Assembly (NCBI RefSeq): GCF_003795145.1
Contig: NZ_CP027786.1
Coordinates: 2,604,001 to 2,668,000, forward strand
Direction of reading: 5' to 3'
DNA: 64,000 nucleotides
DNA from: Tetragenococcus koreensis
Lineage (GTDB): Bacteria > Bacillota > Bacilli > Lactobacillales > Enterococcaceae
Shown here one piece after another: positions 13,433 to 63,526 of this stretch. Below the pieces are notes generated by a model that worked only from the letters and a program-made list of their open reading frames with translations, was not told the origin of the DNA and made no database searches. The translations under genes and the position numbers were made by a program. Position 1 is the stretch's first letter. The number at the start of each line of letters is the position of its first letter.

Positions 13433-13596
13433 CTCTAGAAAGCAGGAAAACTAGAGTAGGATTTGAAAAGGGGCTCTAGAAATTAGAAAAACTAGAGTAG
13501 GGTTCGAAAAGGGACTCTAGAAATTAGGAAAACTAGAGTAGGATTCAAAAAGGGACTCTAGAAATTGAAAAAACTAGAGTAAGTTCAGATGTTACC
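13433..13596. repeat. Tandem repeat, four units of exactly 41 bp, each a hairpin (locus R1)
   Basis: Units start at 13433, 13474, 13515 and 13556. Each begins CTCTAGAAA and carries ACTAGAG at positions about 18-24, so CTCTAG pairs with CTAGAG within or between units. The linker is AGGNTTCNAAAAGGG. Lies in a 670-bp gene-free gap upstream of the ROK kinase. Shares its period and layout with loci at 35952, 61249 and 63310. Confidence 0.85.
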
Positions 13597-13783
13597 CTCC
13601 TATTTTTTCAAGCAGGGGAAGTCAATTCGTGTTCTACCTCCCCTCCGTGTCTCTGGTGCCATGGTGTTGTATGCTTGTAAGATTATGTAAAACATACCTT
13701 TATAACCGCTAACGGACTATTTTTTTGCAGTAGAATAACTTGGTGTTATCCATTACAATAAAAGAAAAGATATTTTTATTTGT

Positions 13784-13801
13784 AAACTGTTCAAACGGTT
13801 T
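13784..13801. promoter_or_regulatory. Candidate operator upstream of the ROK-epimerase pair
   Basis: AAACTGTTCAAACGGTTT is an imperfect palindrome of the form AAACnGTTnnAACnGTTT, 21 bp before the ROK gene start. The shape is that of a LacI/ROK-type operator; the regulator is not in view. Confidence 0.4.
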
Positions 13802-13822
13802 GAAATTGTAGGAGAGATAAAT

Positions 13823-14734
13823 ATGCAATACTATGTAGGCTTTGATATTGGCGGCAGCTCAATTAAATATGGACTGTTAGATGAAAATGGAGAAATTAGT
13901 AAAAAGGATCATTTTAAAACTCCTTCTGATAAGGATCAAGTGTTAGATAAGATGGCCGAAGTAGTTTCTGCTTTTACAAAAGATTATAAGGTAAAAGCAA
14001 TTGGACTGTCTGTTCCAGGTGTAGTGGAAGAAAATGGTTTCCTGACAACAGCCGGCGCGATTTCGTGCTTGTATGGGATAAACATTAAAGAGGAGATAGA
14101 AAAACGAACCGGACTATTTGTCCATGCAGAAAACGATGCGAATGCAGCCTCGATCGCAGAAAAATGGGGTGGGGCAGCTCAGGGTATTGCTAATTATATT
14201 AGTTTAGTTATTGGGACAGGAATCGGTGGCTGCCTAGTTGTTAATCATGAAATTTACCGTGGAGCGCACGCTCGTTCTGGTGAATTTGGCTGGATGCTAT
14301 TAGATGATAACCAGGATGATTTGAACTCAAGCACTATGAATTTTCAAGCAGCTACAATTATCGGTTTGCTGCGGATCTACAATTTAAAATCAGGAGAGAA
14401 GATAAGTGACGCTCGTACGATTTATGAACGTGCAGAAAAAGGTGAGTACTTAGCTCAAACGGTGCTGACAAAATTTCATCGCAAATTAGCTCAAGGGATT
14501 TTAAATGTTGTTGTGTCATTTGACCCATCCGTTGTGGTTATTGGTGGCGGAATTAGTGCTAATCCAACCTTTTTAAAAGATTTACAGCTAGCATATAAAC
14601 AATTGCAAAACGAGCACGGAGCGCTGGTTGATATGGATATTCCACAGATTGTTCCCGCAAAATTTCTTAATGATGCTGGAATCATTGGAGCGGTGTATTG
14701 TGTGAAAGTAGCTTTATCGAAAGAAGTTAAATAG
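13823..14734 (+). CDS. ROK-family sugar kinase
   Basis: A 303-aa ROK kinase. ATP loop FDIGGSSIKYGLLDE (residues 6-20), catalytic Asp105 in HAENDANAASIAEK, IGTGIGGCLVVN (about 133-144) and second ATP motif VVIGGGISANP (about 234-244). The zinc motif CxCGxxGC of classical glucokinase-type ROK proteins is absent; HARSGEFGWMLL takes its place, as in several Firmicutes ROK kinases. Next to an epimerase gene it may be an allose or beta-glucoside-type kinase (inference). AGGAGAGAT precedes ATG. Confidence 0.8.
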   Translation: MQYYVGFDIGGSSIKYGLLDENGEISKKDHFKTPSDKDQVLDKMAEVVSAFTKDYKVKAIGLSVPGVVEENGFLTTAGAISCLYGINIKEEIEKRTGLFVHAENDANAASIAEKWGGAAQGIANYISLVIGTGIGGCLVVNHEIYRGAHARSGEFGWMLLDDNQDDLNSSTMNFQAATIIGLLRIYNLKSGEKISDARTIYERAEKGEYLAQTVLTKFHRKLAQGILNVVVSFDPSVVVIGGGISANPTFLKDLQLAYKQLQNEHGALVDMDIPQIVPAKFLNDAGIIGAVYCVKVALSKEVK

Positions 14735-14768
14735 GGGTAAAAGCAATTGAAAGAAGGAGATGGGATTT

Positions 14769-15443
14769 TTGAAAAAGATCGCGGCTTCAATTATGTGTGC
14801 TGACATGTTAAACGTGCAAACGGAATTAGAACGTTTGGAAAAAACAGATTGCGACTTGTTGCATTTAGATGTAATGGATGGTGTGTTTGTTGATAATTTG
14901 GCTTTAGGGCCGGAGTGGATGGCAAGCGTCAAAAAGCAAACAAACTTACCCTTTGATATTCATTTGGCCACTGAAATGCCAGAAAAATACGTGGAAATGT
15001 TTCGCTTTTTACAACCTGAAACGATTTCTTTTCATATTGAAGCAGCGGCTCATCCAGTTCTTTTAATCAAACGATTGAAAAACTATGGCATTAAGCCCTC
15101 AATAGTATTAAATCCGGTTACTCCTTTGGAAGACATTTTACCTTATATTGATGAGGTGGATCAGATTCTGCTAATGACGGTACCCACAGGTTTTGCAGGA
15201 CAAACTTTTCAACAAGAAACGTTGGAAAAACTGCGTGAGCTAAAAAATATTTTAGCTCAAAGAAACCTACAGCCGTTAATTGAAGTAGACGGAAATATTA
15301 ATACACAAACCATTTCCTGGATGAAAAAAGCTATGCCGGATGTCTTTGTGCTGGGAACATCAGCCTTATTTCAAGGGGGCGATGCTAATAGTTATCAGGA
15401 ACGTATTCAAGCAGTTCGCCAAACGATTAACGCTTATAGATAA
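14769..15443 (+). CDS. Ribulose-phosphate/allulose-6-phosphate 3-epimerase family protein
   Basis: A 224-aa TIM-barrel epimerase. Metal/catalytic motifs: HLDVMDGVFVDN (His and Asp, about residues 31-42), FDIHLATEMPEKY (about 63-75), phosphate loop GFAGQTFQ (about 139-146) and EVDGNINTQT (about 172-181, catalytic Asp). I chose TTG 14769 because GAAGGAG lies 9 bp upstream; the ATG at 14760 abuts that site and is unlikely. It follows the ROK kinase by 34 bp. The HLATE motif in place of HLM suggests an AlsE-like enzyme rather than housekeeping Rpe (inference). Confidence 0.8.
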   Translation: MKKIAASIMCADMLNVQTELERLEKTDCDLLHLDVMDGVFVDNLALGPEWMASVKKQTNLPFDIHLATEMPEKYVEMFRFLQPETISFHIEAAAHPVLLIKRLKNYGIKPSIVLNPVTPLEDILPYIDEVDQILLMTVPTGFAGQTFQQETLEKLRELKNILAQRNLQPLIEVDGNINTQTISWMKKAMPDVFVLGTSALFQGGDANSYQERIQAVRQTINAYR

Positions 15444-15516
15444 GATTGTTAATATAAGCGTGTGTAACTAAAAAAAAGATCAATTCGTTGTTGTAAGCAC
15501 ATAAGAAGACAAAAAT

Positions 15517-15625
15517 AGTGGGATAAAAGAACTATAAGCCCATAGAAACGCAAAACTAGTGAGGTTAGAGAGGATTAGACCCACCATTAGCAAACTTATG
15601 CGCTTAATCTAATTTTTGAAGGCAA
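15517..15625. repeat. Copy B of the dispersed intergenic hairpin repeat
   Basis: AGTGGGATAAAAGAACTATA, then CCCATAGAAACGCAAAACTA and GTGAGGTTA. Same core as 7779-7905. Possible stem CTAGTG with CATTAG. Nothing codes in 15444-15652. Confidence 0.45.
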
Positions 15626-15716
15626 ACATGAAAGAATTTATATGTTAATAATTAAAACTTGAAAGGACCAAAATAGCGTTGATCCCTTGATAAATCAGAC
15701 AAATTTAACAAAAAAA

Positions 15717-15787
15717 TAGCATGAACGATCTCAAACTTGGTATAATAGAGTTAACCAAAAACCACTAACCAAGGAGTGTTCATGCTA
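15717..15787 (+). promoter_or_regulatory. IS promoter with inverted repeat masking the transposase start
   Basis: TAGCATGAAC (15717-15726) is the exact complement of GTTCATGCTA (15778-15787), which spans the transposase start. The likely -10 TATAAT is at 15740-15745, so a transcript started here lacks the left arm, while a read-through transcript would fold and hide the start. Such a device is known for IS10, IS50 and IS231. Confidence 0.55.
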
Positions 15788-17154
15788 TGTCAATTATAAC
15801 ACAAACAAACTCAACTTCGGAAGAATTTTCGCATTCCATATCGAACTTTTTCCATCGTTTCCATCTTTCTGATGCGCTGAAAAAATCCAACGCAAAGCAC
15901 AAGAAAGGGCATCCAGTTTCTGTTATTTTTTCTTTTTTACTGGCTTCGATTTTTACTCATGGCTCGACCTATCGCTCTTATCAAAAACAAAAAGAAGAAC
16001 TCCCCTTTTCCGATAAAACGTTTCGAAATTTGTTAAATGATCCACGGATCCACTGGCAAAAACTTCAGATTTTGATTGCGAAAGCGGTCTTGGCTTTTTT
16101 ACGTCCGCTAACAAGTCAAGATCGGAAAACGACCTTTATCATCGATGATTCCATGTACACACGCTTAAACGCTCAAAAAGTCGAATGTGCAGCACTCCAA
16201 TATGATCACGCCCAAAAGAAATATTTGAAAGGCTTTCGCTATTTACAGTTAGGCTGGAGTGACGGCAATAGCTTTATCCCTGTCGCTTTTTCGCTGCTTT
16301 CAGGAAAGCGAAAAATCCAATCAAATAACCCCTTGGGGGACCAACGGACAAACGCGGGAAAACGCCGCGCACAGGCTTTCCGCAAAGGAACAGAAGTAAC
16401 GGTAGAACTCTTACGTGAGGCGCTGAAACAAGGCGTCCAAGCCGACTATGTCTTATTTGATACCTGGTTTTCGAGTCCTAAAATGTTTCAAGAGATTCGC
16501 ACCTTGCAATGCCACTGCGTCGCCATGATCAAACGTTCAAAGAAGGTGCATTATCGTTACCAAGGACAAATGATGGATGTCAAACAAATCTTTCAAGCCA
16601 ATAAAAAACGTCGCGGCCGCTCACGTTATCTCCTAAGCGTCCAAGTGGAAGCCCTGGTTGACAACGAGGGATTGCCGATAAAATTAGTCTATATTCGAAA
16701 TCGCAATAAACGCAATGAGTACCTCGTTTTGGCTTCCACAGATACAGCCCTGACCGAAGACGAGATCATTCAGCTTTATTCCCGACGCTGGAACATTGAA
16801 ATTTACTTCAAAATGTGTAAGCAATATTTGAAATTGGCCAAATATCAAGGCCTTTCCTACGATGGCATTTTCGCTCATACGACGCTCGTTGCAGTTGCCT
16901 ATATGATTTTAGCCGTTCAAGAACGTGAGAGTAAAGATGACCGCACGTTGGGGGAGTTGTTTTATCTTCTACTCGATGAGCTTTCCGAGTTTTCCGTGGC
17001 CGAAGCAATCTTGCAGTTATTGGATTTATTTCAAGAAGCTTTCGCCAACGAATATGTCTTAGATGAGACAGTTTTAAATAACATTATCGAGCAGTTTCTT
17101 GCCAAGCTTCCCTCTTCGGTCCAAAATCAACTCAAAGGGGCGGGGACAAGTTAA
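15787..17154 (+). CDS. IS4-family DDE transposase
   Basis: A 455-aa transposase. Catalytic Asp in FIIDDSMYTR (about residue 120), second Asp in YVLFDTWFSSPKMF (about 225), and the IS4 signature Y-x2-R-x3-E-x6-K in YSRRWNIEIYFKMCKQYL (about 326-343). The start overlaps the right arm of the inverted repeat described separately; AAGGAG lies upstream. Appears intact. A related but truncated gene lies at 23128. Confidence 0.9.
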   Translation: MSIITQTNSTSEEFSHSISNFFHRFHLSDALKKSNAKHKKGHPVSVIFSFLLASIFTHGSTYRSYQKQKEELPFSDKTFRNLLNDPRIHWQKLQILIAKAVLAFLRPLTSQDRKTTFIIDDSMYTRLNAQKVECAALQYDHAQKKYLKGFRYLQLGWSDGNSFIPVAFSLLSGKRKIQSNNPLGDQRTNAGKRRAQAFRKGTEVTVELLREALKQGVQADYVLFDTWFSSPKMFQEIRTLQCHCVAMIKRSKKVHYRYQGQMMDVKQIFQANKKRRGRSRYLLSVQVEALVDNEGLPIKLVYIRNRNKRNEYLVLASTDTALTEDEIIQLYSRRWNIEIYFKMCKQYLKLAKYQGLSYDGIFAHTTLVAVAYMILAVQERESKDDRTLGELFYLLLDELSEFSVAEAILQLLDLFQEAFANEYVLDETVLNNIIEQFLAKLPSSVQNQLKGAGTS

Positions 17155-17226
17155 TTTTCCTTTAGAAAATGCCTGCATAGCAAGGGATAAGACTGTAAAA
17201 AGAGGTTTCAAGTTTTAGTTAATAAA

Positions 17227-17265
17227 AAAATCGTTGACGCATTTTATTACGTCAACGATTTTTAT
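17227..17265. terminator. Bidirectional terminator, target of the group II intron
   Basis: A 13-bp stem AAAATCGTTGACG/CGTCAACGATTTT (17227-17239 with 17250-17262) with T-runs on both sides. It was originally the terminator of the siderophore-receptor gene, now 1.9 kb away because the intron lies between them. Confidence 0.85.
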
Positions 17266-17269
17266 TTAT

Positions 17270-19157
17270 GTGTGCCAGGCATGGCATTTATCTAGCTGGT
17301 GAAAGTCCAGTCACGGGTAGTTACCGCCAAGTGTAGCGAGCCACAAGCCGAAATCAGTGATGATGGGGTGAAGGAAGTGGTGACGCAAATCTCTTGAGCC
17401 TACGCACAGGAACTTGATGAGGCTAAATGGTGGATAAGGCTGCATAACAAGCTAAAGTCCAAAAGGTAAACGTAAAACCAAGACAGTAAATCAAGAGGTT
17501 GTGGAGAGAAAGATAAATGTCTTACCCTGGGAGGTCTTACGAACGTTTGCGAACGGTCGAAAAAGGTTTGTCGTAAGAAGTCAGCTGAGGCCATAGTAGC
17601 TATTGCATTTCATGTAGTGAAGGGCCGAATGTTTGTATAGTGTGAATCGCTAGAAGGAAATGTCCGAATAGTCCGAAAACGAGAATACCCTAGAACAATA
17701 GAACGTAACTATTGATGGGAAAGGTAGTGGGGGCGGTTTTGGATAAATTTACGCCTAGAGGAGGAACAGCGCATGAGATTAATTGAAAAGATTACGAGTT
17801 ATCAAAATATGACACAAGCCATCGAACAGGTCAAAAAGAATAAAGGGGCCCCGGGCGTGGATGAAATGACAGTTGATGAACTCGACCATTATTTTTATCA
17901 ACAGGGGCGAGATCTTGTTCAAGAGATTCGTTCGATGACCTACCGACCAAAGGCGGTCAAAAGGGTTTATATCCCTAAATCCGATGGGAAACAAAGACCC
18001 TTAGGGATTCCAACTGGGGTAGACCGTGTGGTGCAACAAGCAACAGCGCAACAATTAAGTCGCATCTTCGATGTCCACTTCAGTGAAACCAGTTATGGTT
18101 TTCGTCCGAATCGAAGTGCTCATCAAGCAATTGAAAAAGTACTTGATTACTTGAATGAAGGCTATGAATGGCTCATCGATATGGATATTGAGAAATATTT
18201 TGATACCGTTCACCATGATAAATTAATCTCGACCCTCAGAGAACGGGTCAAAGATAGAGAGACCCTTCATTTAATACGTGTTTTCTTAAAAGCAGGTATT
18301 ATGGAGAATGGCTTCGTTAGTCCGAACGAAACCGGGGTTCCGCAAGGAGGCCCGTTAAGTCCAATTTTAGCGAATATTTATCTGGACAAACTGGATAAAG
18401 AATTAGAAGCAAGAGGGCTGCATTTTGTTCGGTACGCGGATGATACGGATATTTTTGTCAAAAGTGAGATGGCAGCCAACCGTGTGATGAAATCTATTAC
18501 GGATTGGATAGAAAGAAAGTTATTCTTGCAAGTGAATGTCACGAAAACCAAGGTCGTACGACCGACACAAAGTAAATTTTTAGGATTTACCTTTTGGAAG
18601 AACCAAAAGGGTTGGCAGTGTAAACCGAGCAAAGTCAGTAAAACAAAGCTCTATGACAAAACCAAAGAAATTCTTAAAAGGAAACATGCCGTGTCGCGAC
18701 CTTTAACTGTGACATTTACGAAATTGAACCAAATTGTAAGGGGCTGGATCAATTACTACCGTATCGGTAGTATGAAAACCTATCTAGCGAAGTTTGGTCA
18801 ATGGTTACGACATAAAGTCCGTGTCATTATCATAAAACAATGGAAACTTCCGCAACGAATCTATACGAATTTACAACAATTGAATCGACTATTCAATTGT
18901 CATTTCAAGAAAGAAGACATTTATAAGGTCGCTAATTCTAGATTAGGTTGGTATAGGAAATGTGGAATGCACGTTGTCAATTTTACACTGAGTCCGAAAG
19001 TTTTAGCCATAAAGAAAAAGGATAGACCTGGATTGGTCGATCCCTTAACTTACTATCTAAATAAAGTGTGAAAACAATACAAACGTAGCGCCGTATACGA
19101 GAACCGTACGTACGGTGCGACGGGAGGGGCGGAAATTTTATTTCCCCTCTACCCTAT
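17270..19157 (+). mobile_element. Group II intron, bacterial class C-like (about 1888 bp)
   Basis: The 5' end is GTGTGCC at 17270, directly after a terminator stem and its T-tract, the known target of class C introns. About 500 nt of structured non-coding RNA precede the reverse transcriptase. Domain V is AGCGCCGTATACGAGAACCG followed by TACGTACGGTGCG (about 19086-19119). Domain VI is the GGGAGGGG...CCCCTCTACC hairpin ending CCCTAT at 19157. The encoded protein lacks an endonuclease domain, also typical of class C. Ends are inferred to within 1-2 nt. Confidence 0.85.
17773..19071 (+). CDS. ltrA: Group II intron reverse transcriptase/maturase
   Basis: A 432-aa protein. RT blocks run from about residue 25 (GAPGVDEMT) through YRPKAVKRVYIPKSDGKQRP, SYGFRPNRSAHQA and DIEKYFDTVHH to the catalytic RYADDTDIF (about 217-225) and GVPQGGPLSPILANIYLD (about 189-206). 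The maturase X domain carries GWINYYRIGSM (about 322-332). There is no HNH endonuclease. It would splice the intron RNA and drive retrohoming. GAGGAGG precedes the ATG. Looks full length. Confidence 0.9.
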   Translation: MRLIEKITSYQNMTQAIEQVKKNKGAPGVDEMTVDELDHYFYQQGRDLVQEIRSMTYRPKAVKRVYIPKSDGKQRPLGIPTGVDRVVQQATAQQLSRIFDVHFSETSYGFRPNRSAHQAIEKVLDYLNEGYEWLIDMDIEKYFDTVHHDKLISTLRERVKDRETLHLIRVFLKAGIMENGFVSPNETGVPQGGPLSPILANIYLDKLDKELEARGLHFVRYADDTDIFVKSEMAANRVMKSITDWIERKLFLQVNVTKTKVVRPTQSKFLGFTFWKNQKGWQCKPSKVSKTKLYDKTKEILKRKHAVSRPLTVTFTKLNQIVRGWINYYRIGSMKTYLAKFGQWLRHKVRVIIIKQWKLPQRIYTNLQQLNRLFNCHFKKEDIYKVANSRLGWYRKCGMHVVNFTLSPKVLAIKKKDRPGLVDPLTYYLNKV

Positions 19158-20092
19158 TGTAAGGCCTCTTTTACATCTTCTAGCATTTGAGTGTAGGCGA
19201 TCGGACCATTGTATAGCCAGCTGCTTTCAGGACCGAATTCAAACAGTTGGTCATTTTCAACTGCAGGAATATTTTCCCACAATGGATCGTCAAACATTGC
19301 GGCTGATTCATCACTGTTGACTAGAAAAAGATAATCAGCATCCAGTTGTGACAGGCTTTCTAAGGAAACTTGTGACCAGTCAGCTTCGGCGTCTTCTGAA
19401 ACTTCTTCGGTCAATTCGGGTACTTCCAAACCTAAATCGTCATATAATAAACGTCCGCTCGAACGATTTTCAGCGACCATAAAAGCGGAATTATTAGTCA
19501 CCCAAATAACTGCAGCTGATTTTCCGTCAATTTCATCTTGTAATTCATTTTGGACGTCGTTAACTGCATTTTGATAATCAGCTTCAACCTCTTGCGCTTC
19601 ATCTTCTTTATCGAATACCTGTCCGATATCTTCTAAGGTGTCTTCCCAAGTAACGTCTGTGCCGTTTTTCACAACATAAGTCGGAGCAATTTTTTCATAT
19701 TCTTCATATTTGCCACCTTCTACAGTAGCATCAGACTCGATGAGTAATAGGTCCGGTTCGAAATTTAATACATCTTCATAAGGCAAATCAAAATTAATCG
19801 TTGGGATACCGTCTAGTTCATCTTGGAGATATTCTTGTATTTTTCCTTCACCGACTGTCCACTGTGCGACCGGTTTTTCACCCAATGCTACTAGATAATC
19901 TTCTAAATAAGAACCAATGATCCGTTGTGGATTATCAGGGACCTCTACTTCATGATCTTGTGCATCAGTTAAGGTATGTGTTTGGGGCTCAGTCTCAGTA
20001 GACGCACTCTCAGAAGAGTTAGAATTTTCACAAGCACTTAAAGAAATAAACGCTAGGCACGCAAGTGTGCCTGCTAGAAATTTTTTATTCAT
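19154..20092 (-). CDS. Iron-siderophore ABC transporter substrate-binding lipoprotein
   Basis: A 312-aa FeuA/FhuD-type binding protein. Lipoprotein signal MNKKFLAGTLACLAFISLSA with Cys21 as the acylation site, a Ser/Glu-rich linker, then the helical-backbone binding domain (VPDNPQRIIGSYLEDYLVALG start at about 50). The mature protein is very acidic. Divergent from the ATPase and permease genes, with a Fur-box promoter between. The stop codon TAG is read from the last bases of the group II intron: before insertion the frame would have ended at TAA in the same place. Confidence 0.85.
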   Translation of the reverse strand: MNKKFLAGTLACLAFISLSACENSNSSESASTETEPQTHTLTDAQDHEVEVPDNPQRIIGSYLEDYLVALGEKPVAQWTVGEGKIQEYLQDELDGIPTINFDLPYEDVLNFEPDLLLIESDATVEGGKYEEYEKIAPTYVVKNGTDVTWEDTLEDIGQVFDKEDEAQEVEADYQNAVNDVQNELQDEIDGKSAAVIWVTNNSAFMVAENRSSGRLLYDDLGLEVPELTEEVSEDAEADWSQVSLESLSQLDADYLFLVNSDESAAMFDDPLWENIPAVENDQLFEFGPESSWLYNGPIAYTQMLEDVKEALQ

Positions 20093-20112
20093 AGCCTTCT
20101 CCTTTTATAAAT

Positions 20113-20161: not shown

Positions 20162-20181
20162 TAAACTTTTTCATTTAAAGG

Positions 20182-20224: not shown

Positions 20225-20245
20225 ACTTAAGGAGGAATAGATGTT

Positions 20246-35951: not shown

Positions 35952-36229
35952 TTGAGTAACGAATCATTCTTTCTTTACTCATTATCAACTTATTGAGGAA
36001 GACTTTTCTTTTCCTTTACTCAACTTTTAGCTATTGAGTAGTGAATCGTCATTTCATTCCTCATTTTCCGTCTATTTTCGCCACTTTAGCGAATTTTTCT
36101 TTGTTCTTGAGTAACGAATCGTGTTTTCTTTATTCGTTATTAAATTATTGAGGAAAACTTTTCTATTTCATTCCTCATTTTTTGTCAATTGAGTAAAATT
36201 TTTTTACATTATTACTCAGATCCTTACTA
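35952..36229. repeat. 41-bp-period hairpin repeat, 3+3 units with a 32-bp middle (locus R2)
   Basis: Units beginning TTGAG start at 35952, 35993, 36034, then a 32-bp spacer unit (36075-36106), then 36107, 36148 and 36189. Each has a TGAGTA or TGAGGA arm matched about 20 bases later by TACTCA or TCCTCA. It fills the gap between tRNA-Asn and the HAD gene. No coding potential. Confidence 0.85.
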
Positions 36230-46320: not shown

Positions 46321-46365
46321 TACTGATTTTACAAATATTTTCGTGTCATATTGATGATAATCGCT

Positions 46366-48005
46366 CTAAGTGTAAAATTTATTGAGGTTATCCCTAGACG
46401 AATAAAAAAGAAACCGTTACTCTATTCATTGGGCTTACAGGCACTAATGAATAAAGGCGGTTTCTTATGGAATCTATTGTAACAGATTTAGTTGAAGTAA
46501 TGAAGAAGGAAACGAATTTTTTAGCAAGGGAAAAAGCCATGATGGTCTTTTTTGCCCAACTCCTAGCGACGATAACACAACTTGCTTTTCAAATTCTCGA
46601 TGAAGAAGTTTCGACCCAATGCAAGAAGGAAGGCTTTCAAGTGGATCGTAAAAGTGAACGAACGGTGACTTTTTTATTTGGCACCGTGACCTATGTTCGC
46701 CGCCGAATGAAAAATCAAGCCAATGAAATTCGTTATCCTTTGGATGAATTTCTAGGGATTCGAAAGAGCTTCCGTTATAGTTCTCTTGTGCTACGCAACG
46801 TTTCTCAATTGGGGTCCATCATGGTCTATCGTCACGTTTCCCAAGCGATTGATTGTTTGACTTCTTGGCGTATGAGCCACCAAAATGTGCAACAACTGGT
46901 GGTCAAAACCGGGGAACTGATTCAGACGCGAAGTACTCATGAAAGTCGCTACGACGGGATCATTTCTAAGAAAAAAGTGCCCTATTTATATTTAGAAGGC
47001 GACGGAGTGAAGATTGGCGGTCAGAAGAAGCAGTCGCTAGAAATCCATCGTTTTCAAGTATGTGAAGGGAGCCAGAAAGTCGGGAATCGCACGGAAATGA
47101 TCGCCCCGCACTTTGTCAGTCATCTTAACCGACAACAAGCGCAAAAAGAAATAATGAACTATATTCAAGCGCATTATGATCTAACAAATACCGTTGTCGT
47201 TTCCAATAGTGATGGGGGTTCAGGCTATGAAAAAGCCGTGTTTGATGAACTTTCCTTAGGCTGTTTACGTCATGAACACTTTCGTGATCGGTATCATGTC
47301 CATCGGAAAATCAAAGAACGCCTGTCTTTTGTCCCACAACTTCAAAATCGGATGATCCAGGCGATTCAACATTATCATTGGCCAGAGGTCCAGCTTGTCT
47401 TAGATACCTCGGAAAGTTTGATCGAAGAAAAGGAAGCTGAAACCTTGGAACAATTACGCTTACTCCATCATTATCTTCAAAGAAATTGGCCGTATTTAAA
47501 ACCTCGGAAAGCCCGAGGGATCATGGATTCCAAAGCTTGTATTGGCACAATCGAAAGCACCCATCGGAAGATGACCTACCGGATGAAGCGCCAAGGACGG
47601 TTGTGGACAAAAACGGGCGCGCAGGCCATGATTCGTGTCATTGATAGTTTAAGAAACCAAGAATTTGATGGTTGGTTGAACCAATATGAAGCTCTTCCTA
47701 ACGACGTGGTCGCCCAGGAAAAGCGTTGGAAAGCCATGAAACGTTGGGTACAGAAAAAGCCTAACTTTCAAACGCATGAAGGGGCCTTGAAGGGGCAAAT
47801 CGGCGAAGGAAAAGCCAAAAGTGCGCCCTTAGGCCAATTCGCCAAAGGGTTGGAGCAATTAATAACGACACCGAATTATATCTAATAAAAACTTGTTTTT
47901 GTTAGATATCATGAGGTCTAACCGAACGAACGTGAGGTAAAAAAATACAAAAGTGTCTGTCCCAAAGGTCATTTTTTATTCGACCTCAAAAAATTTGACA
48001 CATAC
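46366..48005 (+). mobile_element. Complete ISLre2-family insertion sequence (1640 bp)
   Basis: Left end CTAAGTGTAAAATTTATTGA; right end (complement) GTATGTGTCAAATTTTTTGA; the inner 19 bp match at 17 positions. A perfect 9-bp target duplication ATAATCGCT flanks it (46357-46365 and 48006-48014). It lies 45 bp after the kinase stop and does not break a gene. Confidence 0.9.
46467..47885 (+). CDS. ISLre2-family (UPF0236) transposase
   Basis: A 472-aa protein of the UPF0236 family: VTYVRRRMKNQANEIRYPLD (about 73-92), LYLEGDGVKIG (about 174-184), VVVSNSDGGSGYEKAVFDEL (about 247-266) and SKACIGTIESTHRKMTYRMK (about 352-371). Full length and intact. Confidence 0.9.
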   Translation: MESIVTDLVEVMKKETNFLAREKAMMVFFAQLLATITQLAFQILDEEVSTQCKKEGFQVDRKSERTVTFLFGTVTYVRRRMKNQANEIRYPLDEFLGIRKSFRYSSLVLRNVSQLGSIMVYRHVSQAIDCLTSWRMSHQNVQQLVVKTGELIQTRSTHESRYDGIISKKKVPYLYLEGDGVKIGGQKKQSLEIHRFQVCEGSQKVGNRTEMIAPHFVSHLNRQQAQKEIMNYIQAHYDLTNTVVVSNSDGGSGYEKAVFDELSLGCLRHEHFRDRYHVHRKIKERLSFVPQLQNRMIQAIQHYHWPEVQLVLDTSESLIEEKEAETLEQLRLLHHYLQRNWPYLKPRKARGIMDSKACIGTIESTHRKMTYRMKRQGRLWTKTGAQAMIRVIDSLRNQEFDGWLNQYEALPNDVVAQEKRWKAMKRWVQKKPNFQTHEGALKGQIGEGKAKSAPLGQFAKGLEQLITTPNYI

Positions 48006-48123
48006 ATAATCGCTTCAAAACTTGTTCAAGGCTCAGTGATTGAGTATACTATGATTTAAGAAGATAAGCCCTAGTATTTAGTTAATTTTCTTGTGTATAA
48101 AACTAGCAAAATGTATATAATTT

Positions 48124-57200: not shown

Positions 57201-57344
57201 GAAAAAGTAGAGTATTAAAAGTTAAAACAAGGCTCGATTTAAACTTTATTACATGTGTCCGTGAGAATGGTATTATTGTTCTCTTTTTATAGTTGCTCTT
57301 TTATTAGACGAAAGCTTATAAAATGTATTTCAAGCAATTTGGAA

Positions 57345-57365
57345 AGGATGTCAACTATTCGAAAA
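57345..57365 (+). repeat. Second copy of the 21-bp sequence found at 48124
   Basis: AGGATGTCAACTATTCGAAA(A) differs from 48124-48144 at one base. The two copies bracket the arsenic genes in the same orientation. Confidence 0.5.
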
Positions 57366-57429
57366 TCGTTAGAAAAATTTTTTTAAAACCCAGTAGTAAC
57401 ATGAAAAATTGCTGAATCGACACTTTTTT

Positions 57430-57456
57430 GATATATTGGATATACAAGATATACGG
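57430..57456. promoter_or_regulatory. Palindromic operator candidate of the antitoxin-Doc operon
   Basis: GATATATTGGATATACAAGA contains TTGGATATACAA, nearly its own complement, about 20 bp before the antitoxin start. The layout fits autoregulation by an AbrB-type antitoxin. Confidence 0.4.
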
Positions 57457-57471
57457 AAGGTGGTAAAGCAA

Positions 57472-57714
57472 ATGACAATTCATGAAAGAAAATTAAGAAA
57501 AGTTGGAAATTCAGTTGTAGTTACTTTATCTAAAGACTTATTAGAAAGTATTGGAGCAAAGGAATCTGATACAGTTTATGTTGATGAAGATAAGTTAAAA
57601 GAAATTCTTGTCAAGAAAGAAGAGAAAGATGAACATCAAAAAAGATTAGAAATGGTTATGGCTAAATCTGTGCAAAAGCATGATGAGCTATACAAATCTC
57701 TGGTAACGAGATGA
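57472..57714 (+). CDS. AbrB/SpoVT-type antitoxin
   Basis: An 80-aa protein: HERKLRKVGNSVVVTLSKDL (about 4-23) is the AbrB-fold DNA-binding hairpin; the charged C-terminal helix (KKEEKDEHQKRLEMVMAKSV) would bind the toxin. ATG 57472 follows GGAAGGTGG. Overlaps the Doc toxin start by 4 bp. Confidence 0.75.
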   Translation: MTIHERKLRKVGNSVVVTLSKDLLESIGAKESDTVYVDEDKLKEILVKKEEKDEHQKRLEMVMAKSVQKHDELYKSLVTR

Positions 57715-58118
57715 GCATATATTATTTAATAGTGGAAGATATATCTAAAATAAACGCCTTTCAAATTACAAACTATTCTCCCAAAGAGCAAATGGGTGTT
57801 AAGGATTTGAACGCTTTGGAAATGACTGTTAATCAGCCCTCACAGAACATATTCAATCAAGAATTATATCCTTCAATGGAAGAAAAGGCTGCTGTTTTAA
57901 TGATTAATATAGTCAAAAGACATCCATTTTTTAATGCAAATAAAAGAACAGCAATGATGGCAGTCGATTCGTTTTTACAATTTAATGGATATGAAATTCA
58001 ATTTGAACTAGATGAAGGTATTCAATTAGTTATTGATATAGCTACTTATGAAAAAGATGATTTTGAAAATTTAAAAGCGTATGTATCGAAAGTAATAAAA
58101 TCGAGAATAAAGAGGTAA
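57711..58118 (+). CDS. Doc (death-on-curing) family toxin
   Basis: A 135-aa Fic/Doc protein. The motif HPFFNANKRTA (about 82-92) keeps every residue of HxFx(D/N)xNKR. Doc toxins phosphorylate elongation factor Tu at Thr382 and stop translation. The usual Phd antitoxin is replaced here by an AbrB-type one. Appears intact. Confidence 0.8.
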   Translation: MSIYYLIVEDISKINAFQITNYSPKEQMGVKDLNALEMTVNQPSQNIFNQELYPSMEEKAAVLMINIVKRHPFFNANKRTAMMAVDSFLQFNGYEIQFELDEGIQLVIDIATYEKDDFENLKAYVSKVIKSRIKR

Positions 58119-58207
58119 AAATGATAGCAAGCATTTAAGAATGTACGTTATCTTTTTTTGTACGCTAGTTAGTTTTATTCTTCAAAAAAATTCGAAAAAC
58201 GTTGTGC

Positions 58208-58300
58208 AGATGCCTGTTGGTCCGGCCTTATTAAATGATGAAAGTGGTGGGTTATCCATCAAAAAATGAACTTACGGCGTGGATAAACAGAACCTGGTAA
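58208..58300 (+). pseudogene. arsD remnant
   Basis: From 58241: KVVGYPSKNELTAWINRTW and stop, matching the ArsD core (VKMAGYPSNDEF) of the intact gene at 52631. Just upstream in another frame is QMPVGPALLNDE, resembling LPVVLLDGE, so a frameshift separates the two parts. The rest of arsD is absent. Confidence 0.5.
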
Positions 58301-58370
58301 AGGTTAATAATAGTAAAACCCCCATATCTAATTTTTGCTAGTGATGTATTTCAATTAGGAAGTGCAACGC

Positions 58371-58425
58371 TTGGCAATTACGCTACTAGCGTATATCGTT
58401 AAATTACGATAGCAGCGTAGTAAGG
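58371..58425. promoter_or_regulatory. Promoter and inverted repeats before the XRE gene
   Basis: TTGGCA (58371-58376), 17-bp spacer, TATCGT (58394-58399). Palindromes TACGCTACTAGCGTA and ATCGTTAAATTACGAT overlap and follow it, suitable as operators or a hairpin. Confidence 0.45.
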
Positions 58426-58433
58426 GAGAATCT

Positions 58434-58520
58434 ATGGTCAATAAAATCAATTTCTTCTATCCTCGTTCGTTTAAAGAGACTTCTACGTTACTAAAAAAGA
58501 GTTATAAAAGAAAGGGTTGA
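58434..58520 (+). CDS. Possible 28-aa small protein upstream of the XRE gene
   Basis: ATG 58434 has AAGGGAG 8 bp upstream. Lys-rich peptide (MVNKINFFYPRSFKETS...) ending 5 bp before the next start. Not recognised. Could be what is left of a toxin gene, since the next gene is antitoxin-like, or a leader peptide. Confidence 0.35.
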   Translation: MVNKINFFYPRSFKETSTLLKKSYKRKG

Positions 58521-58525
58521 GTGTC

Positions 58526-58840
58526 ATGCGTGAATCTCTAAAAGAATCGCTTAAAGAATTAACTGCTCTAACAAGCGGGGAATCTAATGAAATTGAGGTT
58601 AGAAGTTACAATTTGACAGAGTCTCCTTCTTACACTGGAAAAGAAATGAAAGACGTTCGTAGTAAAATTGGCGTTTCAAGAGCAGGTTTTGCTGATATTT
58701 TAGGCGTTTCTACTCGCACGATTGAAAAGTGGGAAATTAATGGAGCAGAACCTAATGGGAGTGCTAGAAGATTAATTCAATTACTTGATAATAACCCAGA
58801 GGATATACTTGAAGAAATTAAGCAGGTTAGTTCTCTTTAA
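58526..58840 (+). CDS. XRE-family regulator, HigA-like antitoxin
   Basis: A 104-aa protein with HTH at about 50-75 (KIGVSRAGFADILGVSTRTI EKW) and a helical N-terminal extension (RESLKESLKELTALTSGE). This layout is typical of HigA/MqsA-type antitoxins paired with RelE-like toxins. No toxin gene is beside it. ATG 58526 has GAAAGG 9 bp upstream; TTG 58517 is less likely. Confidence 0.7.
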   Translation: MRESLKESLKELTALTSGESNEIEVRSYNLTESPSYTGKEMKDVRSKIGVSRAGFADILGVSTRTIEKWEINGAEPNGSARRLIQLLDNNPEDILEEIKQVSSL

Positions 58841-58963
58841 ATAAGCTAAAATAAGATAATTTAAATTTTAACATTCAGAGAATATAACCTTTTAAATACT
58901 TTTTTGTTATTACAGTTAACTTTTGGAAGAATAATGGTACGAGAATGCTTTTATTCATGTCCA

Positions 58964-59006
58964 AAAAATCACTACGCCTAATAATAGCAGGCGTAGTGAT
59001 TTTTAC
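58964..59006. terminator. Two-way terminator
   Basis: AAAATCACTACGCCT (58965-58979) pairs with AGGCGTAGTGATTTT (58989-59003). Serves the convergent XRE and quinone-reductase genes. Confidence 0.85.
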
Positions 59007-59009
59007 TTT

Positions 59010-59945
59010 TTAAGCTTTGTTTTTCAGCACAAGTTTTCCGCGTCCATGACCTTCATCAATATGTTTGTGCGCTTGATGAACTTCGGATAGAGGGTAGATA
59101 GTATCAAAATGAACTTTAATTGTTCCATTACCGAATAGTTCAACGACTTTTTCGAAATAATCTTCTCTCAAATCAGTAATAATAAGATGACCTTGAACAT
59201 TGCGTGCTTTTGCTTTGTCTAGGTCGATCCCTTGTAAGGCAACTAAATGGCCATTTTCCCTTAAGACATCAAAGCTTTTTTCTAAAGTTTCCCCGCCCCG
59301 GGTATCGAGAATGATATCAAGATCAGATAAAACTTCTGAAAAATCGGTGGTGTTATAATCGATCACTTCGTCTGCTCCTAGCTCGTATAGGAAGTCATGA
59401 TTGTGGGGGCTAGCTGAAGTATAAACATAAGCGCCTTTACTTTTAGCCAATTGAATAGCCACAATACCGATACCACCTGCGCCGCCGTGAATCATAATAC
59501 GATCACCTTGAGAAATACCTGCTTCTTCAACCAAGCCTTGATAGACAGTGATACCATTAATTCCTAAGGTTGCTCCTTCTTCAAAGGACAGCGTTTCAGG
59601 CTTTTTAAAGACTAAACGTTGGTCTACGGCAATATATTCAGCGTAGCCTCCATGTCGATCTTGGTCTTGAGTGGCTACAACAGGATCACCAACTTGTACC
59701 TTTGTCACGTTTTTTCCAACTTCGCGAACAAATCCAGAAACATCCCATCCAAGAATAAAGGGCATAGGATAGTCAATCCGATCGCCACTGGATTCACTTC
59801 CTTCACGAACATTTGTATCATAGGGACTAATTCCTGTATTTTCAATTTCGATCAATACATCGTTATCTCTGACTTCTGGTTTAGGAAACTCCATTTCTTT
59901 CAATGCTTCTGGCCCACCATAATTTTCAATTGCATATGCCTTCAT
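59010..59945 (-). CDS. NADP-dependent oxidoreductase, quinone-reductase-like (MDR superfamily)
   Basis: A 311-aa medium-chain reductase without zinc ligands. MKAYAIENYGGPEALKEMEF start, GWDVSGFVREVG (about 66-77), NADP loop IMIHGGAGGIGIVAIQLAK (about 150-168). AAAGGAGAT precedes ATG. Single gene. Expected to reduce quinones or enones. Confidence 0.85.
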   Translation of the reverse strand: MKAYAIENYGGPEALKEMEFPKPEVRDNDVLIEIENTGISPYDTNVREGSESSGDRIDYPMPFILGWDVSGFVREVGKNVTKVQVGDPVVATQDQDRHGGYAEYIAVDQRLVFKKPETLSFEEGATLGINGITVYQGLVEEAGISQGDRIMIHGGAGGIGIVAIQLAKSKGAYVYTSASPHNHDFLYELGADEVIDYNTTDFSEVLSDLDIILDTRGGETLEKSFDVLRENGHLVALQGIDLDKAKARNVQGHLIITDLREDYFEKVVELFGNGTIKVHFDTIYPLSEVHQAHKHIDEGHGRGKLVLKNKA

Positions 59946-60218
59946 AAAATGATCTCCTTTCGTTAAGCTATCATTACGATTCGATTTTAGCTAAGCGATT
60001 CAGTTGGTCCGACACTCCCCCTTTAACGTTTTAATTTTGCCCCTCGACAATAATAAATTATCTGATAGTATAGTTACTAAGACATTCCTAACGTCTAACT
60101 AAATTCAGTGTAGTTCTATATAGTCAAAAAGTATATGAAATATATTGGTGAAACGCATAAAAAAGTGATATATCATGCTTTTGATTTTCTTATTAAAAAT
60201 AGTAAAGGGATGAATAGA

Positions 60219-61078
60219 ATGAAAGTTGGCGTTATTGGATTAGGGAATATGGGATACCCTATTGCAGAAAATATATTGCAAGCAGGGCATGAACTGGTGG
60301 TTTATAATCGTACAGCAAGTAAAGCAGACCCTCTTGTTGCTGAAGGTGCAACCCAAGCAATGAGTCCGTCTGAAGTTGCTTTCCGCACAGACGTCGTTTT
60401 TACGGTTTTAGCAGGGGATCAAGCAACAGAACAAGTAGTATTTGGTGAGGATGGAATCTTAAATGGTTTGTCAAAAGAGGGCATTCATGTTGCTATTAGC
60501 ACGATTAGTGTGGATTGTGCCAAAAGATTAAATGAAGCCCACACCGAGCAAGGAAAACATTTTATTTCCACCACCGTTTTGGGACGACCAGATGTAGCTC
60601 AATCAGGCAACCTTCATCTAATCGTTGCTGGGCCTGAGGAAGAAAGGGAAAAATAACCCCAATTTTAGAAGTTATCGGTCAAGATATTTTTGTTATGGGG
60701 GAAGAACCATACTTAGCAAATGTTGCAAAATTAGGCAATAATTTCTTACTTGTTTCGATGCTAGAAGCATTGTCGGAGGCTTTTATTTTCACACAGAAAA
60801 ACGGAATTGAACCTCAGTCGTTCCTTGATGTGATTAGCACATTCTTTGGTTCGCCAATTTATGATAATTATGGCTCTATTATGGTAAATGAAGAGTTTGA
60901 ACCGGCAGGCTTTAAAATGTCTCTAGGTTTAAAGGATACTAATTTAGCATTAGAAGCAGCCCAAGAGGCAGATGCTTCTTTACCACTGGCCGAGCTAGCC
61001 AAAGAACATTTTTCCAAAGGAATAGAAAATGGACTAGAAGATTTGGATTGGGCAGCATTAATTAAAACTATTGAATAA
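60219..61078 (+). pseudogene. Frameshifted 3-hydroxyisobutyrate-dehydrogenase-like gene
   Basis: Two reading frames make one protein of about 285 aa. The first has the Rossmann loop VGVIGLGNMGYPIAENIL and VAISTISVDCAKRL; the second, in the next frame, has KLGNNFLLVSMLEALSEAF with the catalytic Lys. The break is at GGGAAAAATAACC (60646-60658): one extra base there restores IT PILEVIGQDIFVMGEE and joins the halves. ATG 60219 has AAGGGA 10 bp upstream. Recent loss of one A in the A-run, or a sequencing error. Confidence 0.8.
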
Positions 61079-61150
61079 GGTCCTTTTAATTAAGAAACAT
61101 TAACTAGAATAAAGTTAAGTGCAAAAAAGAGAAATTGTAAGATAACCTAT

Positions 61151-61617
61151 CTTTCAGTTGCTCTTTTCCTTTCCTAGGCTTTATACTTTTCTTTAAATGT
61201 AAATTTTATTTAGATTCCCTAGTTGTCAAATAAATAATAGATAAAACGGATAAAGGTTTGACAATCTTCTGTCCAAAAACGAAATCACAGACAACGTTTT
61301 AGATAACTTTTATCCAAGAATTCAATCACAGAGAGAGGAAATGGAAAGTTCTGTCCGAAAAACAGGAGAATAGCCTTTAAATACTCTTAAATAGTCCATA
61401 ACAGATAAAAGTTCGACAATCCACTATCCGAAAACGAAATCACAGATAATAATTTAGAGAAACCTTATCCGAAAATTCGAACACGGAGAAAGAAATCGGA
61501 AAGTCTTATCCGAAAAATAAGAAGAAAAACTTTCTCTTGCTAAATCAGGAATCGATTATCGTTTTATTCACTTTCTTTGCCCAATTGGATTATCTAGTAA
61601 GAATTTTCTAGCGTTTA
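61151..61617. repeat. Left direct repeat bracketing the potassium-channel gene, with 41-bp units (locus R3)
   Basis: 467 bp. The ends (CTTTCAGTTGCTCTTTTCCT start, AAGAATTTTCTAGCGTTTA end) are nearly identical to 63221-63526. Inside are units of exactly 41 bp starting at 61249, 61290, 61331, then a 32-bp unit (61372-61403), then 61404, 61445 and 61486. Units carry TATCCGAAAA with GATA, or TGTCC with GACA, as hairpin arms. Confidence 0.85.
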
Positions 61618-61696
61618 AAAACTAAAAATAATTGTTGAAAATGGCGCAAGAGTTCTTTATAATAAGCTTATTTCAGTAGAGGAGCTAGCTGTTACG

Positions 61697-63055
61697 ATGC
61701 AAAAAATTCAACGATTTCATTTAACCATTTTTCAAATAATATCACTTGGGTTTGCTAGCTTAATTTTGATAGGAACGGGTATGTTAATGCTTCCTATTTC
61801 GTCTAAAAGTGGTGAATTTACTTCGTTTATAGACTCGCTTTTTACGGCTACATCGGCTACTTGTGTGACTGGCTTAACTACGCTTACAACGAGTGAACAT
61901 TGGACTTTTTTTGGACAGGCGGTTATTTTGTTACTCATTGAAATCGGCGGCTTAGGCTTCATGTCAATTCCAGTGATGTTCTTTGTTCTTTCTAAAAGGA
62001 AGATTAGTTTAAGTATCCGCATGGTCCTGCGAGAAGCGTTAAATTCCGAAGAAATGTCTGGAGAAGTCCATTCGCTGCTACGCTTATTAAAAATTGCGCT
62101 TAGCATACAGGGGATAGGAATTATTCTATTAGCACTGCGTTTTGTTCCTCTGATGGGCTGGCAGAAGGGACTATGGTATAGTCTTTTTCACGCTATTTCA
62201 AGTTTCTGTAATGCAGGGTTTGATTTATTTGGAAATAGTTTGGTTTCTTTTCAAAGGGATCCATGGATTTTAATGGTGATAAGTATTTTAATTATCGCAG
62301 GGGGACTTGGCTTTTTTGTTTGGAGTAGCTTATTGTCCACAGCTCAACGAAAGTTCCACCTGAATCTGCACAGTCAAATCGCTCTTTTAGTGACTATTAG
62401 TTTATTAGTCTTAGGAACTTTGGGTTTTTTCATTACAGAATATCATAATCCTGTTCTCTTTGTTGAAGGGGATCCGGTAAAACGATTCTGTAATACTTTT
62501 TTTATGGCTGTTACGCCACGCACCGCTGGTTTTTTCTCTGTTGATTATGCTTTGATGACTCATGCGGGATTGATGTTAACTATGATTTTGATGTTTATTG
62601 GAGGAACCTCTGGATCGACGGCTGGTGGTTTAAAGACGACAACACTTGGCGTATTACTAATTCGAATGCACAGTACATTTAAAGGCCGAAGCCAGGCAGA
62701 GTTTCGCGGGCGTATGATTAAAGAAGGGACTGTTATGCGCGCGTTTAGTTTATTCTTTCTATTTTTAACACTTATTATTTTAAGCACAATTATTCTTTCT
62801 GTCACAGAAACAATTCCTGATGTGAATGGTTTGGGGTTAGAATATATTGTATTTGAAGTAATTTCAGCAATTGGAACAGTAGGACTCACTATGGGTCTGA
62901 CACCGGATTTAACAGATATTGGGAAAATAATCATTGTATTGTTAATGTTTATAGGTAGGGTAGGAGTGATGACCTTTTTCTTCTCCCTTGTTGTACGTGC
63001 AAATAAAAAAGAAGCAAAATTTAGATATCCAGAAGAAACGGTCATGATTGGCTAG
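61697..63055 (+). CDS. KtrB/TrkH-family potassium uptake protein
   Basis: A 452-aa membrane protein with four M1-P-M2 repeats. Pore loops: ATSATCVTGLTTL (about 52-64), HAISSFCNAGFDLF (about 163-176), VTPRTAGFFSVDYA (about 277-290) and VISAIGTVGLTMG (about 387-399). The length fits KtrB. Needs a KtrA/TrkA-type RCK subunit, not in this window. GAGGAG lies 13 bp before ATG. The gene is flanked by long direct repeats. Confidence 0.88.
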   Translation: MQKIQRFHLTIFQIISLGFASLILIGTGMLMLPISSKSGEFTSFIDSLFTATSATCVTGLTTLTTSEHWTFFGQAVILLLIEIGGLGFMSIPVMFFVLSKRKISLSIRMVLREALNSEEMSGEVHSLLRLLKIALSIQGIGIILLALRFVPLMGWQKGLWYSLFHAISSFCNAGFDLFGNSLVSFQRDPWILMVISILIIAGGLGFFVWSSLLSTAQRKFHLNLHSQIALLVTISLLVLGTLGFFITEYHNPVLFVEGDPVKRFCNTFFMAVTPRTAGFFSVDYALMTHAGLMLTMILMFIGGTSGSTAGGLKTTTLGVLLIRMHSTFKGRSQAEFRGRMIKEGTVMRAFSLFFLFLTLIILSTIILSVTETIPDVNGLGLEYIVFEVISAIGTVGLTMGLTPDLTDIGKIIIVLLMFIGRVGVMTFFFSLVVRANKKEAKFRYPEETVMIG

Positions 63056-63220
63056 TCATTTTGTTGGTAATTAAACTTATGGTCTATTTTTAATAGAACA
63101 TATAATGGAAATGATTCATATAAATAGGCATCCGTTTTTAGACGATAAATAAAATTTGCTTATTTGAATTTTTTGTCATTTAAAATAAAAATGTTCAAAG
63201 CATTGGACAACAATAAGGGT

Positions 63221-63526
63221 CTTTCAGTTGCTCTTTTCCTTTCCTATGCTTTATACTTTTCTTTAAGTGTAAATTTTATTTATATTCCCTAGCGGTCAAA
63301 TAAATAATAGATAACAGAAAAAAAGTTCGACAATCCACTATCCGAAAACGAAATCACAGATAATAGTTTAGAGAAACCTTATCCGAAAATTCGAACACGG
63401 AGAAAGAAATCGGAAAGTCTTATCCGAAAAATAAGAAGATAAACTTTCTCTTGCTAAATCAAGAATCGATTATCGTTTTATTCACTTTCTTTGCTCGATT
63501 GTCTAGTAAGAATTTTCTAGCGTTTA
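63221..63526. repeat. Right direct repeat bracketing the potassium-channel gene (locus R4)
   Basis: 306 bp, nearly identical to 61151-61617 but lacking about 156 bp, the size of one 3 x 41 + 32 block. The remaining units begin near 63318, 63359 and 63400. No gene in 63056-63635. Confidence 0.85.

What the first reader, a model, noticed from the sequence alone, without database searches (positions are those of the whole stretch)
13433..63526. One structural family: locus-specific sequence, shared 41-bp period and hairpin layout
Loci R1 (13433), R2 (35952), R3 (61249) and R4 (63318) have little sequence in common except between R3 and R4. All have 41-bp units with two complementary arms about 15-16 nt apart and an A-rich linker (GAGT..ACTC, GAGTAA..TTACTC, TATC..GATA, TGTC..GACA). 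R2 and R3 both use 3 x 41 + 32 + 3 x 41, with 155 bp between blocks in each. This looks like a repeat class defined by structure, which sequence searches would miss.
Basis: seen in the sequence. Interest (0 to 1): 0.7.

Follow-up and report, generated by a model that had tools for sequence, protein, structure and literature searches.

The report
Geometry-conserved 41-bp paired-site arrays
Scattered between the genes of the salt-loving food bacterium Tetragenococcus are small arrays of paired mirror-image DNA sites that keep an exact 41-base spacing while the site sequence differs from family to family; they look like docking arrays for unknown DNA-binding proteins, and some of them sit in mobile elements.

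Summary
In 464 kb of this genome (window plus 20 sampled stretches), period 41 gives 8 three-unit arrays; each other period from 34 to 48 gives 0 or 1. The host is a Tetragenococcus; two strict patterns were found only in that genus. At least six arm families share one frame: half-site, 15-17 bp, inverted half-site, short linker, 41 bp in all, often in blocks of three.

Two corrections. First, each window locus has dispersed sequence relatives, and R1, R3 and R4 begin with an ISLre2-type insertion-sequence end. R1 has a one-mismatch 9-bp target duplication, and its site is empty in a relative. Second, the hairpin reading is weakened: the variable arm position changes independently in the two arms within arrays, though some tests favour pairing. 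At one shared site the arms changed at 1 of 60 positions (variable position left out) and the rest of the array at 66 of 190.

Best reading: phased arrays of half-site pairs for dimeric DNA-binding proteins of several specificities. At two sites, different species hold different arm families. No binding protein was found.

The parts
13298..13713 (+). R1 element: insertion-sequence-type left end CTAAGTGTAAAATTTATTGAGG, internal TAGAGT-family array, right end ..CCGCTAAC; flanked by GGACGATTT (13289-13297) and GGACTATTT (13714-13722), a 9-bp duplication with one mismatch
   Evidence: Empty site in G008 (L103) and flank comparison; duplication search (shuffled 9-mers matched in 3 of 20 trials, so the duplication alone is weak)
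13433..13601 (+). R1 array, TAGAGT-N15-ACTCTA units at 13452, 13493, 13534 and a poor one at 13575
35954..36217 (+). R2 array, GAGKAA-N15-TTMCTC, 3 + 3 units; no insertion-sequence end found
61193..61215 (+). R3 insertion-sequence-type end (4 mismatches to the 20-base end)
   Evidence: no credible target duplication
61248..61511 (+). R3 array, GGAKAA-N15-TTATCC, 3 + 3 units
63263..63285 (+). R4 insertion-sequence-type end (4 mismatches to the 20-base end)
   Evidence: no target duplication found
63317..63425 (+). R4 array, one block of three units, first unit poor
46366..48005 (+). Autonomous insertion sequence of the ISLre2 type, 9-bp duplication ATAATCGCT (46357-46365 and 48006-48014); its left end matches the ends of R1, R3 and R4
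   Evidence: Sequence read; ends; transposase ORF 46467-47885 hits UPF0236, PF06782, E 5.6e-32. That UPF0236 is the ISLre2 family is recalled

Best explanation
These are phased arrays of inverted half-site pairs, bound as double-stranded DNA by dimeric DNA-binding proteins of several specificities, peculiar to Tetragenococcus. Shown: the unit is a half-site, a 15-17 bp gap, the inverted half-site and a short linker, 41 bp in all, so half-site centres alternate about 21 and 20 bp apart, two helical turns each. Several unrelated half-sites use this frame. At a diverged shared site the half-sites are the conserved part. Some families sit in non-autonomous elements with an ISLre2-type end, others show no such end. 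Inferred: one dimer per dyad, neighbouring dimers on one face of the DNA and cooperating, one paralogous protein per arm family. Least certain is the purpose: an architectural anchor at gene-poor joints, or a mobile element's own device, fits better than promoter control for the GAGK family, half of whose classifiable arrays lie between convergent genes.
For: Period 41 alone stands out in three of four sampled genomes. Gaps are strict: inner 15 in 80 of the 86 GAGK pairs listed, 16 in 63 of 65 TTGGWGG; outer 14 in 64 of the 72 GAGK listed; GGAK is looser, inner 15 in 13 of 21 listed. 251 of 312 unit-to-unit gaps are 41, from 97 arrays chosen for having at least one such gap. The variable arm position is independent between arms within arrays: complementary in 61 of 110 GAGNAA (60.1 expected), 21 of 51 GGANAA (24.1), 40 of 140 TTGGNGG (49.8); summed over the positions tested, 32 G-U against 41 A-C. 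Footprint at one site, variable position left out: arms 1 of 60, rest of array 66 of 190, Fisher p 2e-8; with a third strain 1 of 40 and 42 of 135, p 5e-5. Same site, different arms: L014/L071 and L020/L060.
Against: No binding protein was identified. Pair tests not restricted to arrays lean to pairing: GGANAA 48 of 120 against 37.4 expected (45 of 2000 shuffles reach it), GAGNAA 71 of 153 against 62.9 (125 of 2000). GAGTAA position 3 covaries: 83 of 91 paired, 62.0 expected; my attempt to trace which loci cause it used too loose a pattern. Two less diverged comparisons show the footprint weakly or not: 1 of 60 v 8 of 202 (p 0.69), 2 of 48 v 15 of 97 (p 0.056). Arm conservation alone would also fit a hairpin. 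Most arrays fold better than shuffles on both strands. Arrays are absent at some orthologous sites and none was found in a 219-kb sample of G006, so they are dispensable.
Confidence: 0.48

Rival explanations
1. Hairpin class: the arms pair in RNA or in extruded DNA, the structure is what is kept, and arm sequences change by compensation; it would act at 3' ends on termination or RNA stability.
For: Arms are inverted repeats in all families; most of eight arrays fold better than shuffles on both strands, z down to -6.9; arms are conserved; GAGTAA position 3 covaries; pair tests outside arrays lean this way.
Against: Variable arm position independent within arrays and no G-U excess; gap lengths are stricter than a loop needs; R3 folds no better than shuffles (z -0.6 and -1.7) and R4 only on one strand; no curated Rfam family on the arrays.
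Confidence: 0.2
2. Selfish or neutral mobile repeats: non-autonomous insertion-sequence derivatives and their relics with internal tandem units. The 41-bp frame is inherited from one ancestral array, arms are kept alike by conversion, and no dedicated protein exists.
For: An insertion-sequence-like end within 350 bp of 12 of 17 GGAK, 4 of 6 TAGAGT and 6 of 35 TTGGWGG arrays, against 27 of 2000 random windows (the queries that fetched many GGAK and TTGGWGG loci included such an end, so these shares are biased upward). R1 insertion with empty site. Presence and absence between species. Convergent excess is also seen for parasitic pneumococcal repeats (PMC3049150, passages).
Against: 0 of 25 GAGK, 0 of 6 AGGACAT and 0 of 3 CAGGGA arrays have such an end. 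Conversion would homogenise whole units, but loops diverge while arms stay.
Confidence: 0.2
3. Topology sites comparable to REP/BIME: recognised by a general host factor such as gyrase through layout or curvature, with arm sequence of little importance.
For: GAGK arrays lie between convergent genes in 10 of 20 classifiable cases, TTGGWGG in 12 of 34, background 69 of 403; A-rich stretches recur at fixed places of the unit.
Against: Arms are the conserved part; GGAK shows no convergent excess, 1 of 16; G006 sample has no arrays.
Confidence: 0.08
4. Chance periodicity of AT-rich DNA.
For: None beyond the AT-rich composition.
Against: 0 of 1000 local shuffles at each locus; other periods give 0 or 1 loci in the own sample; reversed pattern gives 0 matches in the 105 genomes.
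Confidence: 0.01

Closest known systems
BOX elements of Streptococcus pneumoniae (passages of PMC3049150)
   Same: Intergenic composite repeats with a variable number of internal tandem modules; excess between convergent genes; copy number varies
   Different: BOX is one sequence-defined family (boxA, boxB, boxC). Here unrelated arm families share one geometry, and the arms rather than whole modules are conserved
REP/BIME palindromic repeats (passages of PMC3733652)
   Same: Small palindromic intergenic units, often in opposite orientation, often at 3' ends
   Different: That paper cites G-T pairing in stems as a sign of transcribed structure; here no G-U excess. Strict 41-bp period in blocks of three
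RUP and other bacterial MITEs (passages of PMC2229807)
   Same: Non-autonomous elements with an end like that of a resident insertion sequence, and target duplications
   Different: Only the left end resembles the insertion sequence; the cargo is a dyad array, and several families lack the end
EFAR elements of Enterococcus (recalled; named as a MITE in a passage of PMC3733652; the original paper was not held)
   Same: Modular palindromic repeats in a related family of bacteria
   Different: No sequence comparison could be made here
NikR and BirA operators (recalled, no call)
   Same: Inverted half-sites about two helical turns apart with a gap of about 15-16 bp
   Different: Those are single operators at promoters; here several dyads in tandem, dispersed, with many specificities

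Membership tests
MITE-like derivative of an ISLre2-type insertion sequence | Terminal sequence shared with an autonomous element | tested here: met
   Met at the left end only, for R1, R3, R4 and other copies; right end not similar beyond a few bases
MITE-like derivative of an ISLre2-type insertion sequence | Target-site duplication of the same length as the autonomous element (9 bp) | tested here: inconclusive
   Five fetched autonomous copies have exact 9-bp duplications; of the array elements L059, L063, L020 exact, L054, L056, R1 one mismatch, and at least L004, L005, L017, L018, L035, L058, L060, L061, L115, L230 and R4 none. Shuffled 9-mers matched in 2-12 of 20 trials for the positives
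MITE-like derivative of an ISLre2-type insertion sequence | Empty site in a relative | tested here: met
   R1 in G008; tested for R1 only among elements with the end
MITE-like derivative of an ISLre2-type insertion sequence (GAGK arrays such as R2) | Insertion-sequence-like end | tested here: not met
   0 of 25 GAGK arrays within 350 bp
REP/BIME or other hairpin repeat | Compensatory changes in the arms | tested here: inconclusive
   Variable position independent within arrays in three families; one GAGTAA position covaries; looser tests lean to pairing
BOX / RUP / SPRITE | Sequence similarity to the known modules | not tested
   No pneumococcal module was compared; an Rfam search of window and eight loci gave no curated family on the arrays
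EFAR | Sequence similarity to the EFAR modules | not tested
   Module sequences not available; the original paper was not held
Operator array of a DNA-binding dimer | A cognate protein that binds the half-sites | not testable with these tools
   No candidate protein found; no binding data

The most novel reading that the evidence does not exclude
A genus-wide 'one frame, many words' system: a set of paralogous proteins that bind the same phased 41-bp dyad frame but read different half-sites, so that arrays at one chromosomal site change specificity between species while keeping place and layout. It would be a bacterial counterpart of fast-evolving centromere or recombination-site codes.
Probability: 0.25. 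Interest if true: 0.85.

Novelty: new variant of a known kind. Interest (0 to 1): 0.62.

Why it matters
Interspersed bacterial repeats are normally found by sequence. Here the common feature is a strict geometry (41 bp, dyad, often blocks of three) with at least six arm sequences, so a sequence-based survey would file one class as several unrelated ones. Arms conserved against diverged loops point to a function. Sites that hold different arm families in different species (L014/L071, L020/L060) give a handle on how DNA-site specificity turns over. If the proteins exist they would be a multi-specificity DNA-binding family in a food starter organism.

Tried and rejected
Rfam on the window and on eight loci: no curated family at gathering score on the arrays; at a loose threshold only microRNA-type hits in L195 and L040 near arrays. 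Phage collection (one query, TTGGWGG array) and plasmid collection (two queries, TTGGWGG and GAGK): no match; records of the window's own genome may be left out there. RNA folding as a discriminator: inconclusive. Gene context: convergent excess for GAGK (10 of 20 with clear neighbours, 25 arrays in all, p 0.0007) and TTGGWGG (12 of 34 of 35, p 0.01), not for GGAK (1 of 16 of 17); background 69 of 403. Arrays and background used different ORF cut-offs and different sets of genomes, and pneumococcal repeats show the same excess, so this is weak. Homology of the right modules of R1-type and GGAK elements: one of four pair tests strong (z 5.8), three not; a GGAK right-module profile searched against 400 kb plus four R1-type elements ranked three elements with the insertion-sequence end on top, at E 0.21, 0.25 and 0.6, and missed two of the four targets: suggestive only. 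Helical phasing from block gaps (45 gaps, best period 10.25): kept as support only, because gaps of 82-84 may be a lost unit and all arrays were chosen for a 41-bp gap. Footprint rows: pairs without the same family in the partner, identical pairs and pairs over 35% different were dropped, and the variable position was left out. Finding the binding protein: not attempted beyond Pfam on eight window proteins. Papers: searches listed no title or abstract that describes these arrays; I saw passages of PMC8249745, PMC8605565, PMC2229807, PMC3049150 and PMC3733652, and listings only for the rest. PMC8249745 mentions an ISLre2 family element in T. halophilus.
Full report
WHAT IS THERE. The four loci are real. 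Self-match at lag 41 exceeds every dinucleotide shuffle of the window for R1-R3, lag 155 does so for R2 and R3, and local shuffles are exceeded at all four loci, R4 narrowly. R2 and R3 have exactly the 41,41,73,41,41 layout. In one register all four read half-site(6)-N15-inverted half-site(6)-N14: TAGAGT in R1, GAGKAA in R2, GGAKAA in R3 and R4.

HOW WIDE IT IS. The window is bases 2604001-2668000 of the main contig of a 2.73-Mb genome. A two-unit GAGK pattern over 84,980 species genomes gave 13 stretches, all Tetragenococcus. A TTGGWGG pattern gave matches in 8 of 105 genomes of the family, all in the window's genus, and none for the reversed pattern. G001, of the same genus as the window, appears to be T. 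halophilus DSM 20339, because its contig of 804,210 bases has the length of NZ_PXYA01000002.1. In 464 kb of the own genome, period 41 gives 8 three-unit loci and each other period from 34 to 48 gives 0 or 1; in G005 (400 kb) 9 against at most 2; in G001 (400 kb) 4 against at most 1; in G006 (219 kb) none. Two of the nine G005 loci (in L196 and L198) look like chance by eye. These scans added the families TTGGWGG, AGGACAT and CAGGGA. One G001 locus (AAATGAA, L207) has another register and stays uncertain. By sequence, the R4, R1 and R2 queries match 15, 6 and 12 places of the own genome; a TTGGWGG query has 41 matches in the own genome and hits 8 of 9 genus genomes, a GAGK query 8 of 9, the R4 query 3 of 9. 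G006 has none for these three.

GEOMETRY. Inner gaps are 15 bp in 80 of the 86 GAGK pairs listed, 16 in 63 of 65 TTGGWGG, 17 in 15 of 17 CTAGAG (the same sites as TAGAGT-N15) and 15 in 13 of 21 GGAK. Of 312 unit-to-unit gaps in 97 arrays, 251 are 41; others cluster at 73-74 (13), 82-84 (22) and 114-124 (9). Arrays of three or more units mostly start and end with a complete inner dyad: an extra half-site is found at 9 of 40 GAGK, 2 of 34 GGAK and 9 of 62 TTGGWGG array ends, with chance rates of about 8, 9 and 2%, so there is some excess of half units in GAGK and TTGGWGG. Half-site centres are about 21 and 20 bp apart, two helical turns.

STEM OR HALF-SITE? Each arm has one freely varying position. 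Within arrays the two sides vary independently: complementary in 61 of 110 GAGNAA (60.1 expected), 21 of 51 GGANAA (24.1), 40 of 140 TTGGNGG (49.8). Summed over the positions tested, G-U pairs number 32 and A-C pairs 41, so neither strand shows wobble tolerance. Against this: GAGTAA position 3 covaries (83 of 91 paired, 62.0 expected); tests not confined to arrays lean to pairing (GGANAA 48 of 120 against 37.4; GAGNAA 71 of 153 against 62.9); and most arrays fold better than shuffles on both strands, though R3 does not. The variable position lies about 10 bp from the dyad centre in all three families, which hints at one kind of protein interface. In the purine-rich orientation, loop positions 10-12 are A-rich in the five families examined, strictly AAA in three; orienting by purines favours this.

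CONSTRAINT. At a site shared by the own genome and T. halophilus Tet1 (L032 and L069), with the variable position left out, arms differ at 1 of 60 positions, the rest of the array at 66 of 190 and the flanks at 42 of 195. With subsp. flandriensis (L066) the figures are 1 of 40, 42 of 135 and 43 of 196 (Fisher p 2e-8 and 5e-5). Over the 23 comparisons kept, arms are 40 of 1002, rest 377 of 2872, flanks 484 of 4337. These are partly reciprocal, include copies within one genome and one cross-family pair, and the arrays were defined by their arms in one partner. Two less diverged comparisons are not significant (1 of 60 v 8 of 202; 2 of 48 v 15 of 97).

MOBILITY. R1, R3 and R4 begin with CTAAGTGTAAAATTTATTGAGG or a variant of it, the left end of the insertion sequence at 46366-48005, whose transposase hits UPF0236. 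That element, and five fetched relatives, have exact 9-bp duplications. R1 (13298-13713) lies between GGACGATTT and GGACTATTT and is missing from the same place in G008. For other elements the duplication is exact in L020, L059 and L063, has one mismatch in L054 and L056, and is not found in at least eleven others. An insertion-sequence-like end lies within 350 bp of 12 of 17 GGAK, 4 of 6 TAGAGT, 6 of 35 TTGGWGG, 0 of 25 GAGK, 0 of 6 AGGACAT and 0 of 3 CAGGGA arrays, against 27 of 2000 random windows. Some queries that fetched GGAK and TTGGWGG loci included such an end, so those shares are biased upward. The GAGK array of L025 is absent at that site in L065 and L141, with no duplication seen by eye.

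SAME SITE, DIFFERENT ARMS. Between the same two convergent genes the own genome has a GGAK 3+3 array (L014), and Tet1 (L071) and G002 (L147) have GAGK arrays; both flanks match. G008 (L140) and a metagenome bin (L067) share the downstream flank only and also have GAGK arrays. At another site the own genome has a TAGAGT element (L020, exact duplication GCTATGATT) and G001 has a GGAK element (L060) in the same orientation, ending at the same base beside CTTATATTTTAA; both flanks match, but G001's duplication fails the one-mismatch test. Either the arms were replaced within one old insertion, or a second element took the same place. Weak homology of the right modules leans to the first but does not settle it.

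MECHANISM. Most likely a set of proteins binds these dyads cooperatively on one face of the DNA. What that does is unknown; my guess is an anchor or insulator at gene-poor joints, or a mobile element's own device. Geometry, dispersal and constraint at one site are shown; lack of pairing is supported with exceptions; protein, binding and function are inferred.

Noticed in passing
61193-63530: The trkH-like gene (61697-63055, TrkH) is flanked by two direct copies, R3 and R4, that also share about 50 bp upstream of the insertion-sequence-type end; homologous recombination between them would delete the gene.
   Followed up: no
17351-19157: Group II intron with a reverse transcriptase ORF (17773-19071; RVT_1 and GIIM) and three Rfam group II matches.
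   Followed up: no
7787-7950: A further, weak lag-41 peak (47 of 82) with no assigned arm family.
   Followed up: no
L037:16565 and L047:18925: Lag-41 peaks whose arms fit none of the six families by eye; possible further families.
   Followed up: partly
L034:17380: An insertion-sequence-like end followed by a right-module-like stretch (17584-17635) but no array that I recognised; possibly an element that lost its array.
   Followed up: partly
L094:2-2252: An ISLre2-type copy that looks interrupted: its similarity to the other copies breaks about 150 bp inside the left end and resumes about 1.6 kb away at 68-73% identity.
   Followed up: no
G006 sample L167-L186: One member of the genus shows no 41-bp arrays in 219 kb and no match to three array queries; a natural negative for gene comparison.
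   Followed up: partly
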